From positions 1 to 64,000 of the forward strand of contig NZ_FOQF01000018.1 of assembly GCF_900113655.1 (NCBI RefSeq): a DNA stretch of 64,000 bases, given 5' to 3'. Under the pieces are notes generated by a model that worked only from the letters and a program-made list of their open reading frames with translations, was not told the DNA's origin and searched no databases. The position numbers were made by a program, and so were the translations under genes. This document shows positions 1 to 7,324 of this stretch, piece by piece (within the stretch, counting starts at the first letter, position 1; each line of letters starts with the position of its first letter). The stretch is from Pseudobutyrivibrio sp. OR37. Lineage in GTDB: Bacteria > Bacillota > Clostridia > Lachnospirales > Lachnospiraceae.

Positions 1-12
1 GTGTATTGGTGA

Positions 13-275
13 ATCAATCGGTTTGGTAATGCCCATGATCGCGGAGCATCAACAACCTCGCATAAAAGAATTCAGTTAGAGATGATTTGTTGCGACCCAA
101 CTGCCAATGGGAAACCATGAACTCTAACAAACAGCTAGTGGGTTTGAAGTTAACTTCCGTGCCAGGGGAACTGACTATTAATGAAGTAACCATTAAGGCT
201 CAACAAGGAGTGAAAGAACTATTACCTGATTGACTCAAGGTCAATAATATCATGAGCATAACCAAACCGATTGAT
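13..275 (+). ncRNA. Candidate structured non-coding RNA with long closing stem
   Basis: No open reading frame of useful size covers this stretch, yet it is full of complementary segments. Bases 13-38 pair with 250-275 at 24 of 26 positions, forming a closing stem. Inside are a perfect 7-bp helix (75-81 with 122-128) enclosing a hairpin with a GAAA tetraloop (107-118), a 6-bp hairpin (178-183/191-196, loop 7) and a 6-bp hairpin (229-234/240-245, loop 5). This looks like a folded RNA with a multibranched core. I do not recognise the class. RNase P, tmRNA and 6S signatures were looked for and not seen. The raiA motif, a ~200-nt Firmicutes RNA, is the first class to test by size, but I did not match its sequence. 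The strand is assumed from the downstream gene and could be reversed. The RNA may begin left of the window. Confidence 0.6.
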
Positions 276-333
276 GGAGTTGTATAAATGTAAAAACTTA
301 GTAACAAAATATATATTACGAGGAGTATGTTAT

Positions 334-1107
334 ATGGACAATTATGATGCTTTCAAGAAAGAAGTTTATGACTTGACAAAGATTGATTTAAGCTCATACA
401 AGGAAAAGCAGATGCGTCGACGTATCGACTCTTTGGTAACCAAGCATAAATGCAAGGAATACCATGAGTATGTAGGCTTATTAAAGAAGGATAAAGAAGT
501 CTTTGATGAATTTGTAAACTTCCTAACTATTAATGTATCAGAATTTTATCGTAATCCTGAGCAGTGGGAGCTTATGTCTAAGGAATTTATTCCTGAACTT
601 ATGAAGCATTCAGGTCAGAATCTTAAGATTTGGAGTGCTGCTTGCTCTACAGGTGATGAGCCATATTCTCTTGTAATGGCCTTGTCTCAGCATATTCCTT
701 TAAATAAAATTAAGATTTATGCCACTGATATTGATAAACAGGTTATTGCTACTGCAAAGGTAGGCTTATATAACGCTAAAAGCATTGCTGGTGTTCCTGC
801 AGATTTGAAAAAGAAGTTCTTTACTCCTGTGGGAAGCTCTTTCCAGATAAGCGAAGATGTAAAAAAATGTGTTGAATTTAAAGAACACAATCTTTTAAGG
901 GATTCTTATCCTACAAACTATGACATGATAGTTTGTAGAAATGTACTTATTTATTTCACCGATGAAGCTAAGGATGAGGTTTATGCAAAATTTGCAAAAT
1001 CCTTGCGACAGGGCGGAATCCTCTTTATTGGCTCTACCGAGCAGGTTATTAATTATAAGGAGCTTGGTTATAAGAGACGTTATTCCTTCTATTATGAGAA
1101 GGTTTAA
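334..1107 (+). CDS. cheR: CheR-type protein-glutamate O-methyltransferase
   Basis: Transfers methyl groups from S-adenosylmethionine to glutamates of chemoreceptor signalling domains in the cytoplasm. The protein has 257 residues, the normal size for CheR. A helical N-domain carries the MRRRID motif (about residues 30-35). The methyltransferase fold follows, with the SAM loop AACSTGDEPYS at about 105-115, YATDID at about 131, and the CRNVLIYF segment at about 205. The ATG at 334 is chosen because AGGAG lies 8 nt upstream; an in-frame ATG at 271 would run into the closing stem of the upstream RNA candidate. No other chemotaxis gene is nearby, so it acts with partners encoded elsewhere. The 3' end overlaps the convergent exonuclease gene by 4 bp. 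Confidence 0.9.
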   Translation: MDNYDAFKKEVYDLTKIDLSSYKEKQMRRRIDSLVTKHKCKEYHEYVGLLKKDKEVFDEFVNFLTINVSEFYRNPEQWELMSKEFIPELMKHSGQNLKIWSAACSTGDEPYSLVMALSQHIPLNKIKIYATDIDKQVIATAKVGLYNAKSIAGVPADLKKKFFTPVGSSFQISEDVKKCVEFKEHNLLRDSYPTNYDMIVCRNVLIYFTDEAKDEVYAKFAKSLRQGGILFIGSTEQVINYKELGYKRRYSFYYEKV

Positions 1108-2162: not shown

Positions 2163-2278
2163 AACTAACTATTTTCCAATCCTATCTTTTGTCAATTTTA
2201 ACACTAAGTGTAACAGTTTGGTATTCAAAAATATACAAAACAAATGATAAAATTTCTCTATTAGTTATGTATAAATGT

Positions 2279-2316
2279 TATAATTTAATTAAATATACGA
2301 AAAAAGAAAGAGGGGG
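2279..2316 (+). promoter_or_regulatory. Likely -10 element and strong RBS of the rnf operon
   Basis: TATAAT at 2279-2284 lies 40 nt before the rnfC start and a GGGGG Shine-Dalgarno core is at 2312-2316. The -35 region (about 2256-2261) is a poor match, so the promoter is only moderately supported. The divergent yprB-like gene starts at 2162, so this gap must hold the rnf promoter. Confidence 0.4.
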
Positions 2317-2323
2317 TAAAAAA

Positions 2324-3643
2324 ATGAGCCTTAGAACATTTAAAGGTGGTGTACATCCTTATGAAGGCAAAGACCTTACAAAAGATAAGCCAATTAAGGA
2401 ATACTTACCACAGGGCGATTTAGTTTTTCCTCTGTCTCAGCATATCGGCGCACCGGCAGTTGCATGTGTTGCTGTAGGCGACACTGTGCTTAGAGGTCAG
2501 AAGATTGCTGACGCAGGAGGATTCGTTTCTGCTCCAATTTTTTCTAGTGTTTCCGGTACCGTAAAGGCAATCGAACCTAGACGAGTTGCTACTGGAGATA
2601 TGGTCGATTCCATCATAATCGAAAGTGATGGTAAATTCATTGAAACTGGTTTTGAACATTGTGACGATTTCACCAAGCTTTCCAATGAAGATATTCTTAA
2701 GAAGATTCAGGAGGCTGGTGTAGTAGGCATGGGCGGTGCAGGTTTCCCAACTCATGTTAAATTGTCACCTAAGAATCCAGAACAAATTGAATATATCATT
2801 GCTAACTGTGCAGAATGTGAGCCATATCTTACATCTGACTACAGGAGTATGGTTGAAAATCCAGATAAACTCATTCTTGGTATGAAAATTATTCTCAAGC
2901 TTTTCCCTAAAGCCAAGGGCCTTTTAGCTGTTGAGGATAACAAGAGCGATGTTATTACATCTCTCCAAAGACTTACACAAAGTGAGTCTAGAATTGAGGT
3001 TGTGCCACTTCTTACAAAATATCCACAGGGTGGTGAACGTCAGATTATTAAAGCTTGTACGGATCGAGAAATTAATTCCAAGATGCTTCCAGCTGATGTG
3101 GGATGTATCGTTGATAATGTTGCTACCATCAACGCAATCTACACAGCAGTTGTAGAAGGAAAGCCTGTTATGGATCGAATCTTTACAGTTACAGGCGATG
3201 CTGTTATGGAGCCACGCAATTATCGAATTTGCATAGGCACAAGTTGTAAAGAAATTTTAGAAGCAGCTGAGGGATTTGTTAAAGAGCCAGCTAAAATCAT
3301 TTCAGGTGGCCCTATGATGGGATTTGCTGTTATGGATACAGATTTCCCTACAACAAAAACATCAGGAGCAATACTTTGCTTGTCTGAGGATGAGGTTTCT
3401 AAATATGAGACTACAGCTTGCATCAATTGTGGAAGATGCGTAGAAGCTTGCCCAGAGAACCTGATTCCTTCAAGACTTTCTAAATTCTCTGAACATAATG
3501 ACAAAGAACAATTCGAAAAATGGTACGGACTTGAGTGTATTGAATGCGGTAGCTGTAGCTATGCTTGCCCTGCAAGAAAGCCATTGGCTCAGGCAATCAA
3601 GACAATGAAAAAACAAATTCTTGCTGATAAGAGAAAAAAGTAG
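2324..3643 (+). CDS. rnfC: Rnf ion-translocating oxidoreductase subunit C
   Basis: Cytosolic NADH/FMN-binding subunit of the Rnf complex, which exchanges electrons between reduced ferredoxin and NAD+ while moving Na+ or H+. It has 439 residues. The glycine-rich GMGGAGFPTHVK motif at about 133-144 belongs to the NADH/FMN site. Two [4Fe-4S] motifs lie near the C-terminus: CINCGRCVEACP at about 365 and CIECGSCSYACP at about 404. The ATG at 2324 follows a strong GGGGG ribosome site; an upstream in-frame ATG at 2189 has none. First gene of rnfCDGEAB. Confidence 0.95.
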   Translation: MSLRTFKGGVHPYEGKDLTKDKPIKEYLPQGDLVFPLSQHIGAPAVACVAVGDTVLRGQKIADAGGFVSAPIFSSVSGTVKAIEPRRVATGDMVDSIIIESDGKFIETGFEHCDDFTKLSNEDILKKIQEAGVVGMGGAGFPTHVKLSPKNPEQIEYIIANCAECEPYLTSDYRSMVENPDKLILGMKIILKLFPKAKGLLAVEDNKSDVITSLQRLTQSESRIEVVPLLTKYPQGGERQIIKACTDREINSKMLPADVGCIVDNVATINAIYTAVVEGKPVMDRIFTVTGDAVMEPRNYRICIGTSCKEILEAAEGFVKEPAKIISGGPMMGFAVMDTDFPTTKTSGAILCLSEDEVSKYETTACINCGRCVEACPENLIPSRLSKFSEHNDKEQFEKWYGLECIECGSCSYACPARKPLAQAIKTMKKQILADKRKK

Positions 3644-3659
3644 AAAGGAAGGGTAGAAC

Positions 3660-4598
3660 GTGAGTAATTTATTAAAAGTTTCTTCATCTCCACATGTTAG
3701 AGCGAAGGACGATAGCAGTATTATCATGTTATATGTGATAATTGCACTTATGCCAACTACACTTTTTGGCATAATCAATTTTGGAGTTCGCGCATTATTA
3801 CTTGTGTCTGTATGTATCGCTAGCTGTGTTTTATCTGAATTCTTATTTGAAAAGGCTGTTGGAAAGAAGAGTACTATCGGTGATTTAAGCGCCGCTGTTA
3901 CAGGACTTCTTCTTGCACTCAATTTGCCACATACACTTCCTGTTTGGCAGGCAGTTTTAGGTAGCGTTTTCGCTATTGTTGTTGTAAAAATGCTTTTTGG
4001 CGGTTTAGGTCAGAACTTCATGAACCCAGCTCTTGGAGGTCGTGTATTCTTACTTATTTCTTTTGCAGGAACAATGACTCATTTTGAGTATGACGGACTT
4101 GCTGGACCTACTCCACTTGCTTCAATCGGCGGTGGTAACGTTAATACACTTGATATGTTGATTGGACGTACAGCTGGAACAATCGGTGAAACAAGTACAA
4201 TTTGTATTCTAATCGGTGCTATTATCCTTATTTTATTAGGAGTTATCGATTTAGTAATTCCTGGTGTTTACATTCTTACATTCTCCATTTTTGTTATTTT
4301 ATTTGGAGGACATGGATTTGATACATCATTCCTTGTTGCTCACCTTTGTGGTGGTGGATTAATGCTTGGTGCGTTCTTTATGGCAACAGATTATGTAACG
4401 TCACCGATCACACCTCTTGGTAAGGTTATTTTTGGTATCTGCCTTGGTATTTTAACAGGTATCTTTAGATTCTTTGGAAACAGTGCAGAGGGTGTTAGCT
4501 ACGCTATTATTTTCTGTAACCTCTTGGTTCCACTTATCGAAAAGATTACTGTACCTAGAGCCTTCGGAATCTCAAGGGAGGTGAAGTCTAATGAATAA
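3660..4598 (+). CDS. rnfD: Rnf complex subunit D
   Basis: Membrane subunit homologous to NqrB, 312 residues with about ten hydrophobic segments. Family members carry a covalent FMN on the Thr of an (S/T)GAT-like motif. Here the segment reads GLAGPTPLAS with Thr151, so the usual Ala before Thr is Pro. The start is GTG at 3660 with GGAAGGG upstream. The 3' end overlaps rnfG by 8 nt (ATGAATAA), implying translational coupling. Confidence 0.93.
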   Translation: MSNLLKVSSSPHVRAKDDSSIIMLYVIIALMPTTLFGIINFGVRALLLVSVCIASCVLSEFLFEKAVGKKSTIGDLSAAVTGLLLALNLPHTLPVWQAVLGSVFAIVVVKMLFGGLGQNFMNPALGGRVFLLISFAGTMTHFEYDGLAGPTPLASIGGGNVNTLDMLIGRTAGTIGETSTICILIGAIILILLGVIDLVIPGVYILTFSIFVILFGGHGFDTSFLVAHLCGGGLMLGAFFMATDYVTSPITPLGKVIFGICLGILTGIFRFFGNSAEGVSYAIIFCNLLVPLIEKITVPRAFGISREVKSNE

Positions 4599-5214
4599 AC
4601 TAGTAAAAGATGCACTAGTACTTACATGTATTACTCTTATTGCAGGCTTCGCTTTGGGACTTGTTTATGAAATCACAAAGGCTCCAATCGAAAGAGCACA
4701 TCAGGCTGCTATGAAAGAAGCTTATTCTTCAGTTTTTGCTGATGCTGCTTCCTTTGCAGAAATAGAGGATTTTGAATCTTCAGCTGCTACAGACTATGTT
4801 CACGAAGCAGGCTATGGCACAGAAACAATTGATAATTGTGTAGAAGCTATTGATGGTTCAAACAATGTAATTGGTTATGTACTTACAGTTACAACATCAG
4901 CTGGTTATGGCGGAGATATTACATTTTCCGTTGGAATAACAAATGACGGCACAATCAATGGTTATTCAATTACTTCAATTTCTGAGACTGCTGGTCTTGG
5001 TATGAAGGCTAAAGATACAGGTGATGGCACATTTTCTTCTCAGTTTATAGATAGAAAAGCAGAAATATTTACAGTTACAAAGACTGGTGCTTCTTCTTCT
5101 AGTGAAGTAGATGCTATTTCAGCAGCAACTGTAACTTCTCGTGCTATGACAGGTGGAATTAATGCTTGTATCACCTACTTTGAATCTATCGTAGGAGGTG
5201 CTGCAAATGAATAA
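4591..5214 (+). CDS. rnfG: Rnf complex subunit G (FMN-binding)
   Basis: Single-span membrane subunit whose extracytoplasmic FMN_bind domain carries covalently attached FMN. It has 207 residues. A hydrophobic N-terminal helix lies at about 8-28, and SAATVTS at 177-183 provides Thr180 as the predicted flavinylation site. The attaching enzyme ApbE is not encoded in this window. GGGAGG precedes the start. It overlaps both neighbours by 8 nt with the same ATGAATAA sequence. Confidence 0.93.
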   Translation: MNKLVKDALVLTCITLIAGFALGLVYEITKAPIERAHQAAMKEAYSSVFADAASFAEIEDFESSAATDYVHEAGYGTETIDNCVEAIDGSNNVIGYVLTVTTSAGYGGDITFSVGITNDGTINGYSITSISETAGLGMKAKDTGDGTFSSQFIDRKAEIFTVTKTGASSSSEVDAISAATVTSRAMTGGINACITYFESIVGGAANE

Positions 5215-5935
5215 GAACCTAGAAAGAGTATATAATGGACTTTGGAAGGAAAATCCTACCTTTGTATTAATGCTTGGTATGTGTCCAACTCTTGCTGTTA
5301 CCACATCAGCAATTAATGGTATTGGTATGGGACTTTCTACAACTGTAGTTCTTGTTTTATCAAATATGCTTATTTCTGCTCTTAGAAATATCATTCCGGA
5401 TAGAGTAAGAATGCCAGCTTTTATCGTTGTAGTTGCTTCATTCGTTACAATTGTTCAGTTTTTAATGGAAGGTTTTACTCCTTCATTATATGAATCCCTT
5501 GGAATTTATATTCCTCTTATAGTAGTTAACTGTATCATCTTAGGTCGTGCTGAAAGCTACGCAAGCAAGAATCCTGTTATTCCATCTATGTTTGATGGTA
5601 TTGGTATGGGACTTGGTTTCACAATTGGTCTTACACTTATTGGTATAGTTCGTGAAATCCTTGCAAACGGTTCAATATTCGGCGCTACAATCACACCACT
5701 TAACGACTATCACATCACTTTGTTTGGTCTTGCACCTGGTGCTTTCTTAGTACTTGGTTGTTTAGTGGCAATTATGAATGTAGTTCGTCGCAATATGGAA
5801 GCTAAGGGTAAACCGCTTCCAGCAGTTCAGGGATGTCTTGGTGGAGATTGCTCAGGATGTACTTTATCCTCAGCCTGCACTGGAAAGACTTCGACTAATA
5901 AGGCTGATGATAATATAGGAAAGGAGGAGGAATAA
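5207..5935 (+). CDS. rnfE: Rnf complex subunit E with Cys-rich C-terminal tail
   Basis: Integral membrane subunit, paralogous to RnfA, with about six helices. Conserved cysteines in GMCPTLAV (about residue 26) and VVNCIILG (about 108) are those expected to share an intramembrane iron-sulfur centre with RnfA. ATG 5207 is preferred over one 9 nt upstream because AGGAGG lies 8 nt before it. At 242 residues it is longer than the membrane core. The last ~40 residues hold four cysteines in the pattern C-x4-C-x2-C-x5-C followed by a charged end. The function of that tail is unknown. Confidence 0.93.
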   Translation: MNKNLERVYNGLWKENPTFVLMLGMCPTLAVTTSAINGIGMGLSTTVVLVLSNMLISALRNIIPDRVRMPAFIVVVASFVTIVQFLMEGFTPSLYESLGIYIPLIVVNCIILGRAESYASKNPVIPSMFDGIGMGLGFTIGLTLIGIVREILANGSIFGATITPLNDYHITLFGLAPGAFLVLGCLVAIMNVVRRNMEAKGKPLPAVQGCLGGDCSGCTLSSACTGKTSTNKADDNIGKEEE

Positions 5936-6519
5936 TGAGTTACGTTACAGGTCTAATTCTTTTATTAGTAGCTTCGGCTATTGTAAATAATGTTGTTCTT
6001 TCTCAGTTCCTTGGACTTTGCCCATTTCTTGGAGTTTCTAAGAGAGTTGAGACTGCGGCAGGTATGGGTGGAGCAGTAATCTTCGTAATTACTATTGCAT
6101 CCTTTGTAACATCTCTTATTTATAAATTTATTTTAAAGCCTACCGGATTCGAATACATGCAGACAATCGTGTTCATTCTTGTTATTGCTGCACTTGTTCA
6201 GTTCGTAGAGATGTTCCTAAAGAAGAGCGTACCTGCACTTTATAAGTCACTTGGTGTTTACCTTCCACTTATCACAACAAACTGTGCAGTGCTTGGTACA
6301 GCTATCAATAATGTTACTAAAGAATATGACATTCTCGAGTCAGTTATTAATGGTTTTGGTGTAGCTGTTGGTTTTACAATTGCTATCGTTATCATGGCTG
6401 GTATTAGAGAAAAGATTGAATACAACGATTTTCCACAGGCCTTCAAGGGCTCAGCTATCGTTCTTGTTACAGCAGGACTTATGGCTATGGCTTTCATGGG
6501 CTTTGCTGGAGTGATTTAA
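5935..6519 (+). CDS. rnfA: Rnf complex subunit A
   Basis: Integral membrane subunit of 194 residues, the usual length, with six hydrophobic helices. Conserved cysteines occur in LGLCPFLGV (about residue 30) and TTNCAVLG (about 114), the counterparts of those in RnfE. Start and stop codons of rnfE and rnfA share one base (TAATG), after AGGAGGAGG. Confidence 0.95.
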   Translation: MSYVTGLILLLVASAIVNNVVLSQFLGLCPFLGVSKRVETAAGMGGAVIFVITIASFVTSLIYKFILKPTGFEYMQTIVFILVIAALVQFVEMFLKKSVPALYKSLGVYLPLITTNCAVLGTAINNVTKEYDILESVINGFGVAVGFTIAIVIMAGIREKIEYNDFPQAFKGSAIVLVTAGLMAMAFMGFAGVI

Positions 6520-6532
6520 GGAGGGCTGACAA

Positions 6533-7324
6533 ATGAGTATAGCAGGAATTTTACTGGCAGCTGTTATAGTTGGCGCTACCGGTTGTATTATTGGATTTTT
6601 CCTTTGCTTCGCATCTGAGAAGTTTAAGGTAGAGGTTGACCCTAGAGAAGAAGCCATCCTTGGTGTTCTTCCTGGAAATAATTGTGGTGGTTGTGGTTAT
6701 GCTGGATGTTCTGGTTTAGCTGCAGCTATTGCAAAGGGTGAGGCACCTGTTAATCAGTGCCCAGTTGGTGGAGCACCTGTTGCGGCTCAGATTTCTGATA
6801 TTATGGGTGTTGCTGCTGAAGAAGGCGTTCGCAAGGTCGCATTCGTTATGTGTAATGGCACATGTGAAAATGCTAAACAACTTTATGATTACACTGGTGT
6901 TGAGGATTGTCAGGCAATGGCTTATGTTCCTGGCGGCGGTCCTAAGGCTTGTTCTTATGGCTGTATGGGATTCGGGTCATGTGTTAAGACTTGTCCTTTT
7001 GACGCTATTCATATTGTTGATGGTGTGGCTCTTGTTGACAGAGACGCATGTAAGGCTTGTGGTAAATGTGTTGCTGTATGTCCAAATCATCTTATTGAGC
7101 TTATTCCTTACGATTTTGGTCACGCTGTCAGATGCCATAACAATGATAAGGGAAAAGATGTTATGAGTGTTTGTAAGGTCGGCTGTATTGGCTGCCATAA
7201 GTGTGAAAAGGTTTGTGAAAGCGATGCAATCCATGTTGATGGATTCTTTGCCCACATAGATCAAAGTAAGTGTACAAGCTGCGGTAAATGTGCTGAAGCT
7301 TGTCCAAGGAAGATTATTTTGTAA
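6533..7324 (+). CDS. rnfB: Rnf complex subunit B, ferredoxin-type electron entry subunit
   Basis: Accepts electrons from reduced ferredoxin on the cytoplasmic side. It has 263 residues with an N-terminal membrane helix (about 3-25). A CGGCGYAGC-type [4Fe-4S] domain lies at about 47-80. Four further ferredoxin-like cysteine clusters follow at about 143-155, 173-184, 209-223 and 245-256. The number of clusters is typical of clostridial RnfB, which is richer in Fe-S centres than the proteobacterial form. GGAGGG is the ribosome site. Confidence 0.95.
   Translation: MSIAGILLAAVIVGATGCIIGFFLCFASEKFKVEVDPREEAILGVLPGNNCGGCGYAGCSGLAAAIAKGEAPVNQCPVGGAPVAAQISDIMGVAAEEGVRKVAFVMCNGTCENAKQLYDYTGVEDCQAMAYVPGGGPKACSYGCMGFGSCVKTCPFDAIHIVDGVALVDRDACKACGKCVAVCPNHLIELIPYDFGHAVRCHNNDKGKDVMSVCKVGCIGCHKCEKVCESDAIHVDGFFAHIDQSKCTSCGKCAEACPRKIIL

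What the first reader, a model, noticed from the sequence alone, without database searches (positions are those of the whole stretch)
1..290. Unassigned structured RNA with a 26-position closing stem upstream of cheR
Bases 13-38 and 250-275 pair at 24 of 26 positions and enclose at least three further perfect helices, one with a GAAA tetraloop. A 333-bp gene-free stretch is unusual in this dense window. The size and closed multibranch fold point to a functional RNA rather than a simple leader. Adjacency to cheR could mean regulation of chemotaxis, or be chance. The raiA motif class is the first known one to compare.
Basis: partly seen in the sequence, partly recalled or inferred. Interest (0 to 1): 0.75.

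Follow-up and report, generated by a model that had tools for sequence, protein, structure and literature searches.

The report
Jumping gene's guide RNA beside cheR
The structured RNA beside the chemotaxis gene cheR is most likely the guide ("bridge") RNA of an IS110-type jumping gene, read from the opposite strand, and its guide resembles the ribosome's own start-site detector, which would explain why these elements land just in front of bacterial genes.

Summary
The fold is real (24 of 26 closing pairs), but it is not an unassigned cheR leader. Window 1-320 is the left non-coding end of an IS110-family insertion sequence. Five left ends and five right ends lie in this genome, and relatives sit directly upstream of an IS110 transposase. 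The RNA reads from the minus strand: the joined element ends give a TTGACA-17-TATAAT-like promoter in 24 of 24 measurable junctions (patterns discussed in the report). Thirty-nine aligned sequences support a closing stem around two stem-loops (29 of 63 pairs with changes on both sides). Guides in the first loop match each element's own insertion flanks better than swapped flanks (0 of 10,000 permutations). Between two elements differing at 6 of 320 bases, 4 differences fall in these guides. The left guide is pyrimidine-rich, like an anti-Shine-Dalgarno sequence; 52 of 56 insertion sites have a gene start just beyond it, against 49 of 126 AGGAG control sites. At cheR the insertion is scarless, keeps AGGAG, and separates gene from upstream region. 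Known kind (bridge RNA/seekRNA), new variant; IS900 is a precedent for start-signal targeting.

The parts
1..320 (-). Left end (non-coding) of an IS110-family insertion sequence, up to the contig edge; 5' to 3' on the minus strand. The transposase start lies beyond base 1.
   Evidence: Repeat and homologues; 20 further bases with a ribosome-binding site on contig C41; junction by flank comparison
249..275 (-). Closing stem P1, 5' arm of the bridge RNA
205..215 (-). Left target guide (UUUCACUCCUU), anti-Shine-Dalgarno-like
   Evidence: Permutation test on relatives; position; difference to G101 at 211-212
175..182 (-). Right target guide (AUUAAUAG)
   Evidence: Permutation test; position; difference to G101 at 179-180
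132..142 (-). Proposed left donor guide
   Evidence: Similarity to the right tip, judged by eye
56..67 (-). Proposed right donor guide, pairing with a two-base interruption
   Evidence: Similarity to the left tip, judged by eye
12..39 (-). Closing stem P1, 3' arm of the bridge RNA
313..318 (-). -10-like hexamer TAATAT (TATAAT in most relatives), completed in the circle by TTGACA 17 nt upstream at the right tip
321..322 (+). Core dinucleotide AG (CT on the transposase strand)
   Evidence: Both junctions and empty sites
321..325 (+). Shine-Dalgarno AGGAG of cheR, target of the insertion
334..1107 (+). cheR (257 aa), host gene downstream of the insertion

Best explanation
Window 1-320 is the left end of an IS110-group insertion sequence and encodes its bridge RNA on the minus strand. 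Inferred cycle: the element excises as a circle; the joined ends make a sigma-70-type promoter; the RNA (a 5' segment, closing stem P1, a target-binding loop, a donor-binding loop) is made and bound by the recombinase. The target loop pairs with a Shine-Dalgarno site (left guide ..CUCCU, right guide ..AUAG) and the donor loop with the circle junction. Recombination at a CT core inserts the element without a scar, transposase divergent from the gene. Here the site was the Shine-Dalgarno of cheR. Shown from sequence: element identity, structure, guide/target matching, scarless site, preference for Shine-Dalgarno sites; the strand is strongly indicated. Inferred: expression, recombinase binding, activity, donor pairing, and any effect on cheR.
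For: Multicopy repeat at contig ends, 0 mismatches among the copies over the stretches available. IS110 transposase next to relatives. Junction promoter with constant 17-nt spacing, 24 of 24; -35 TTGACA in 25 of 26 right tips found without asking for it. Consensus structure with changes on both sides in 29 of 63 pairs, 0 of 500 shuffles. Guides match own flanks: 194 of 312 vs 159.4 swapped, and 76 of 105 vs 45.1 swapped, 0 of 10,000 each. Guide changes between sister elements with matching target changes. Empty cheR sites and paired flanks. Gene start beyond 52 of 56 sites.
Against: No RNA or protein experiment here. This genome's element is split by the assembly. The window's own -10 is TAATAT, not TATAAT. 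Right guide of the sister element matches the third target base in only 3 of 9 flanks. Donor pairing has misfits (L111, L113, L140) and was judged by eye. The plus strand also folds well. No Rfam model matches.
Confidence: 0.94

Rival explanations
1. A cis-acting 5' leader or riboswitch on the plus strand that regulates cheR.
For: The stretch lies upstream of cheR and the plus strand folds well.
Against: The same sequence lies at four other places in this genome before other sequences; 27 of 27 relatives lack it at cheR; homologues go with a transposase; no promoter-like site towards cheR in 1-330 by a simple scan.
Confidence: 0.02
2. The stretch is a structured 5' UTR of the transposase mRNA that controls its translation, and site choice is made by protein alone.
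For: It lies directly upstream of the transposase start in relatives; RNA control of an IS110-family transposase, ISPpu9, is described (PMC8450116, search listing only).
Against: Protein-only choice does not predict that each element's loop matches its own flanks or that most differences between sister elements lie in the guides. Both roles could coexist.
Confidence: 0.03
3. Arms are inverted repeats of a passive element (MITE) and no RNA is made.
For: Multicopy repeat with inverted arms.
Against: Arms are internal, not terminal; compensatory changes across 39 sequences; guide/target matching.
Confidence: 0.01

Closest known systems
IS621 bridge RNA, IS110 group (PMC11208160; abstract, sections 4-7 and 12 and a word search seen)
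   Same: Left-end RNA upstream of a DEDD recombinase; promoter made by the joined ends; target loop first, donor loop second; 5' side of a loop matches the left half, 3' side the right half; a core included in the guides; discontiguous right donor pairing.
   Different: Both loops sit inside a long closing stem; [quoted passage not shown] The RNA would be about 300 nt against 177. Targets are Shine-Dalgarno sites, not REP elements. Transposase about 410 aa against 328. Figures could not be seen, so a similar stem in another clade is not excluded.
ISEc21 and IS1111 seekRNAs (PMC11187229; abstract, sections 6, 12, 13 and a word search seen)
   Same: Non-coding region guides target choice; upstream of tnp in the IS110 type; natural redirection between relatives by guide changes is described (ISMch6).
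   Different: Target sequence and predicted RNA length (74-nt seekRNA there).
IS900 (IS110 family; Doran 1997, title seen in the reference list of PMC8141618)
   Same: Reported to target translation initiation signals.
   Different: Different lineage; its RNA and guides were not compared here.

Membership tests
IS110-family insertion sequence | DEDD transposase with PF01548 and PF02371 | tested here: met
   Relative's protein: PF01548 6.3e-27, PF02371 2.1e-25; NCBIfam NF033542 above cut-off in 3 of 3. In this genome only C-terminal parts were found.
IS110-family insertion sequence | IS110 group: long non-coding end upstream of the transposase | tested here: met
   Left end 354-364 nt in three relatives measured; whole element 1,722-1,739 nt
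IS110-family insertion sequence | Scarless insertion around a short core, no long terminal inverted repeats | tested here: met
   cheR flanks join at one AG and agree with empty sites
Bridge RNA / seekRNA | Promoter formed by joined right and left ends | tested here: met
   24 of 24 junctions with at least 10 of 12 consensus bases, 19 exact, all spaced 17 nt; search patterns were partly conditioned on the hexamers, check
Bridge RNA / seekRNA | Conserved structure with two loops | tested here: met
Bridge RNA / seekRNA | Target guides that covary with insertion flanks | tested here: met
Bridge RNA / seekRNA | Donor guides that covary with element ends | tested here: inconclusive
   Both TG-tipped relatives (L109, L144) carry the matching loop change; L132, L134 and window fit; L111, L113, L140 do not; by eye, no statistic
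Bridge RNA / seekRNA | RNA expressed, bound by recombinase, needed for recombination | not testable with these tools
   Needs experiment
raiA motif or another Rfam family | Match to an Rfam model | tested here: not met
   No match at E<=5 in 1-1500, both strands

The most novel reading that the evidence does not exclude
These elements are reversible gene switches addressed by RNA: by copying the ribosome's anti-Shine-Dalgarno sequence the guide directs scarless insertion between a gene's promoter and its ribosome-binding site, and scarless excision restores the gene, so that cheR and other genes could be phase-varied. The anti-Shine-Dalgarno loop, once expressed, might also touch mRNA translation in trans.
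Probability: 0.12. Interest if true: 0.75.

Novelty: new variant of a known kind. Interest (0 to 1): 0.55.

Why it matters
It suggests how a mobile element can find a site that exists in front of very many genes: its guide imitates the anti-Shine-Dalgarno sequence. The lineage offers dozens of natural guide/target pairs and one natural retargeting between nearly identical elements, which is useful for bridge-RNA specificity. As no Rfam model matches, such RNAs may go on being reported as orphan structured RNAs.

Tried and rejected
Rfam at E<=5: nothing. blastn of 1-333 against phage and plasmid collections: no match. Early thoughts of a group I/II intron or an IS605-type RNA were dropped without a test of their own once the IS110 transposase appeared. 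Promoter scan 1-1200: two promoter-like sites, 4.0 expected by chance, none on plus within 1-330.

Limits of the counts; of 41 loci parsed (L108-L148; L149, 24% identity, left out), L109 had only 4 nt of left flank and L123 no left tip, so n = 39 for the left guide; n = 21 for the right guide, being those with at least 9 nt of right flank. Four loci with a left guide ending CCTT (L109, L126, L129, L146) call for a register one base off; L126, L129 and L146 were scored in the unshifted register, which works against the result. One tip (L118) was set by hand. L140's right guide was misparsed, but it had no right flank and was not used. One search parsed left guides wrongly and was replaced. For the window and G101 elements the shifted register was chosen after seeing the sequences. 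The loci are related, so permutations are not fully independent. One search has 57 rows with the cheR site twice: 56 distinct, 52 positive; failures L113, L122, L147, G171; C41 and C9 are weak positives (a 73-codon GTG frame opposite another gene; a TTG start in what looks like a broken gene). L109 and L123 were left out; end-finding patterns already asked for TTGAC[AT] and, at the left tip, for GTAT[AG][AG]T or GTTTTAG, so the hexamer counts are conditioned; the 17-nt spacing was not asked for. Without the -35 in the pattern, 26 of 41 loci gave a right tip, 25 with exact TTGACA; of the 15 without a tip, 11 have contigs ending within 98 nt of the usual gene end or before it. Alignment A2: 37 of the 41 loci (L110, L118, L123, L147 omitted for length or truncation), the window and one G101 copy. 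An identity check was out of register; one search replaced it.

Literature. That Shine-Dalgarno targeting by a bridge RNA was not found in print rests on searches of an open-access library and on word searches of two papers. PMC11208158: listing and abstract start only. PMC7823733 and PMC8141618: passages only. PMC8450116: listing only.

Full report
Observation. The arms pair at 24 of 26 positions, and the enclosed 265 nt fold better than shuffles on both strands (z -5.5 minus, -4.9 plus). No Rfam model matches 1-1500 at E<=5.

A mobile element. The window starts at a contig edge. This genome holds five left ends of the same sequence, each reaching or nearly reaching a contig end (within 20 bases), with 0 mismatches to the window over the 320, 320, 270 and 87 bases compared. 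Beyond the junction the host sequence differs each time: C74 and C61 run into reading frames, C41 lies at the 3' end of a gene on the other strand, C9 lies before what looks like a broken gene. The opposite end, next to the C-terminus of an IS110-type transposase, occurs five times. In a sample of 397 family genomes, 17 had a match at E<=1e-6, this genome included. Of ten relatives' loci printed with sequence to the left of the RNA, eight show a protein start (M-x-x-LYVGIDVSSK) on the other strand, G374 and G294 do not. One such protein matches PF01548 and PF02371, three of three tested match NCBIfam's IS110 RNA-guided transposase model, and the first matches the sequences of the solved IS621 and ISCro4 transposases. 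A scan of genome contigs gave 42 loci; 41 (L108-L148) were analysed.

Ends and strand. The left tip reads host..CT|CGTATAAT, the right tip ..TTGACA..CACCGCTGGA|CT..host; this genome's right tip has CTAGACT, as in all 14 copies shown. Joined as in a circle, 24 of 24 measurable junctions have at least 10 of 12 consensus bases, 19 exactly TTGACA-17-TATAAT, always 17 nt apart. The patterns used to find the ends partly required the hexamers but not the spacing; right tips found without asking for a -35 have TTGACA in 25 of 26. The window's own -10 is TAATAT. This promoter reads towards the transposase, the window's minus strand. The consensus fold leans the same way: -56.7 against -50.0 kcal/mol, and single sequences fold better in that sense in 30 of 39.

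Structure. In 39 aligned left ends the consensus has a closing stem P1 around two stem-loops. With it 97.4% of cells pair, 29 of 63 pairs show changes on both sides, and 0 of 500 shuffles reach these values; sliding partners by 1-3 columns leaves 28-46% paired. Relatedness, and the fact that the structure was derived from this alignment, inflate such counts, but helices 1, 5, 7 and 8 have at least five pairs each with changes on both sides.

Target guides. The 5' variable segment of the first loop was compared with the 8 nt left of the core in the element's own flank: 194 of 312 identities in 39 loci against 159.4 +/- 6.7 for swapped flanks. The gain lies mainly at positions -2, -4 and -5; positions -6 and -8 to -12 show little or none. 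The 3' segment was compared with the right flank: 76 of 105 over five positions in 21 loci against 45.1 +/- 4.2, the gain mainly at +1 to +3; windows of 3, 4 and 7 gave similar results. No permutation of 10,000 reached the observed value. The elements of this genome and of another genus (G101) differ at 6 of 320 positions, four of them in the guides (179-180, 211-212). The base four left of the core follows the guide in 5 of 5 flanks here and 2 of 2 there; the third right base follows it in 5 of 5 here but only 3 of 9 there; one flank here (C41) departs at -1.

Donor guides. The second loop resembles the element's tips: both relatives with left tip TG carry the matching loop change (L109, L144), and unusual right tips of the window, L132 and L134 recur in the loop, while L111, L113 and L140 do not fit. 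This was judged by eye.

What is targeted. The left guide is pyrimidine-rich, so it reads as anti-AGGAG for the gene strand. Of 56 distinct left junctions, 52 have a start codon 5-17 nt on, opening at least 50 codons (20 if the sequence ends). Controls in this window, both strands: 49 of 126 AGGAG, and 273 of 1,910 AGRRD. So the element favours Shine-Dalgarno sites beyond what the motif alone gives, with its transposase divergent from the gene.

The cheR case. In 27 genus relatives with cheR the element tip is absent, and 22 have AGGAG within 20 nt before the start. The right-end flank on contig C57 matches the cheR upstream region in 26 of 27 (80-93% over 802-1,351 nt) and over 100 nt in the other (L155, with only 199 nt available); three other right-end contigs tested do not match, the fifth (C73) was not tested. 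Joined at one AG the flanks read ..GAATAGGAGTATGTTATATGG: scarless. The gene keeps its Shine-Dalgarno, but the conserved upstream region, presumably with the promoter, lies one element away (1,722-1,739 nt in three relatives). No promoter-like site towards cheR was found in 1-330. Lower cheR expression is a prediction.

Known or new. In kind this is an IS110 bridge RNA/seekRNA (PMC11208160, PMC11187229). It differs from the descriptions read in the closing stem around both loops, in length, and in a guide like the anti-Shine-Dalgarno sequence. IS900 is a precedent for start-signal targeting (Doran 1997, title only). The word 'Shine' does not occur in the main text of either bridge/seekRNA paper; the search IS110 + Shine-Dalgarno listed seven papers, none of which appears from the listing to treat this.

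Noticed in passing
L079 (G312 C28) end and L141 2119-2145: The left tip is repeated in tandem (21 nt in G312, 13 nt in L141), as if a second event had hit or left the element's own end.
   Followed up: no
Transposase start in L108-L148: By eye, the transposase's own ribosome-binding site is often GAAGGTG and not AGGAGG, which might help the element avoid inserting into itself; this genome's copy reads GGGAGGTG.
   Followed up: no
G000:C52:163-1332, G000:C66:511-1680, G000:C34 and C66:2121-2399: Other, distant IS110-type transposases (26-36% identity) in the same genome.
   Followed up: no
L066 transposase residues 249-381: Sub-threshold similarity of the C-terminal part to the TIGR-Tas endonuclease model NF052498, in line with the relation described between the two systems.
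   Followed up: no
window 2189-7324: An operon that looks like rnf electron-transport genes lies shortly after cheR (by eye).
   Followed up: no
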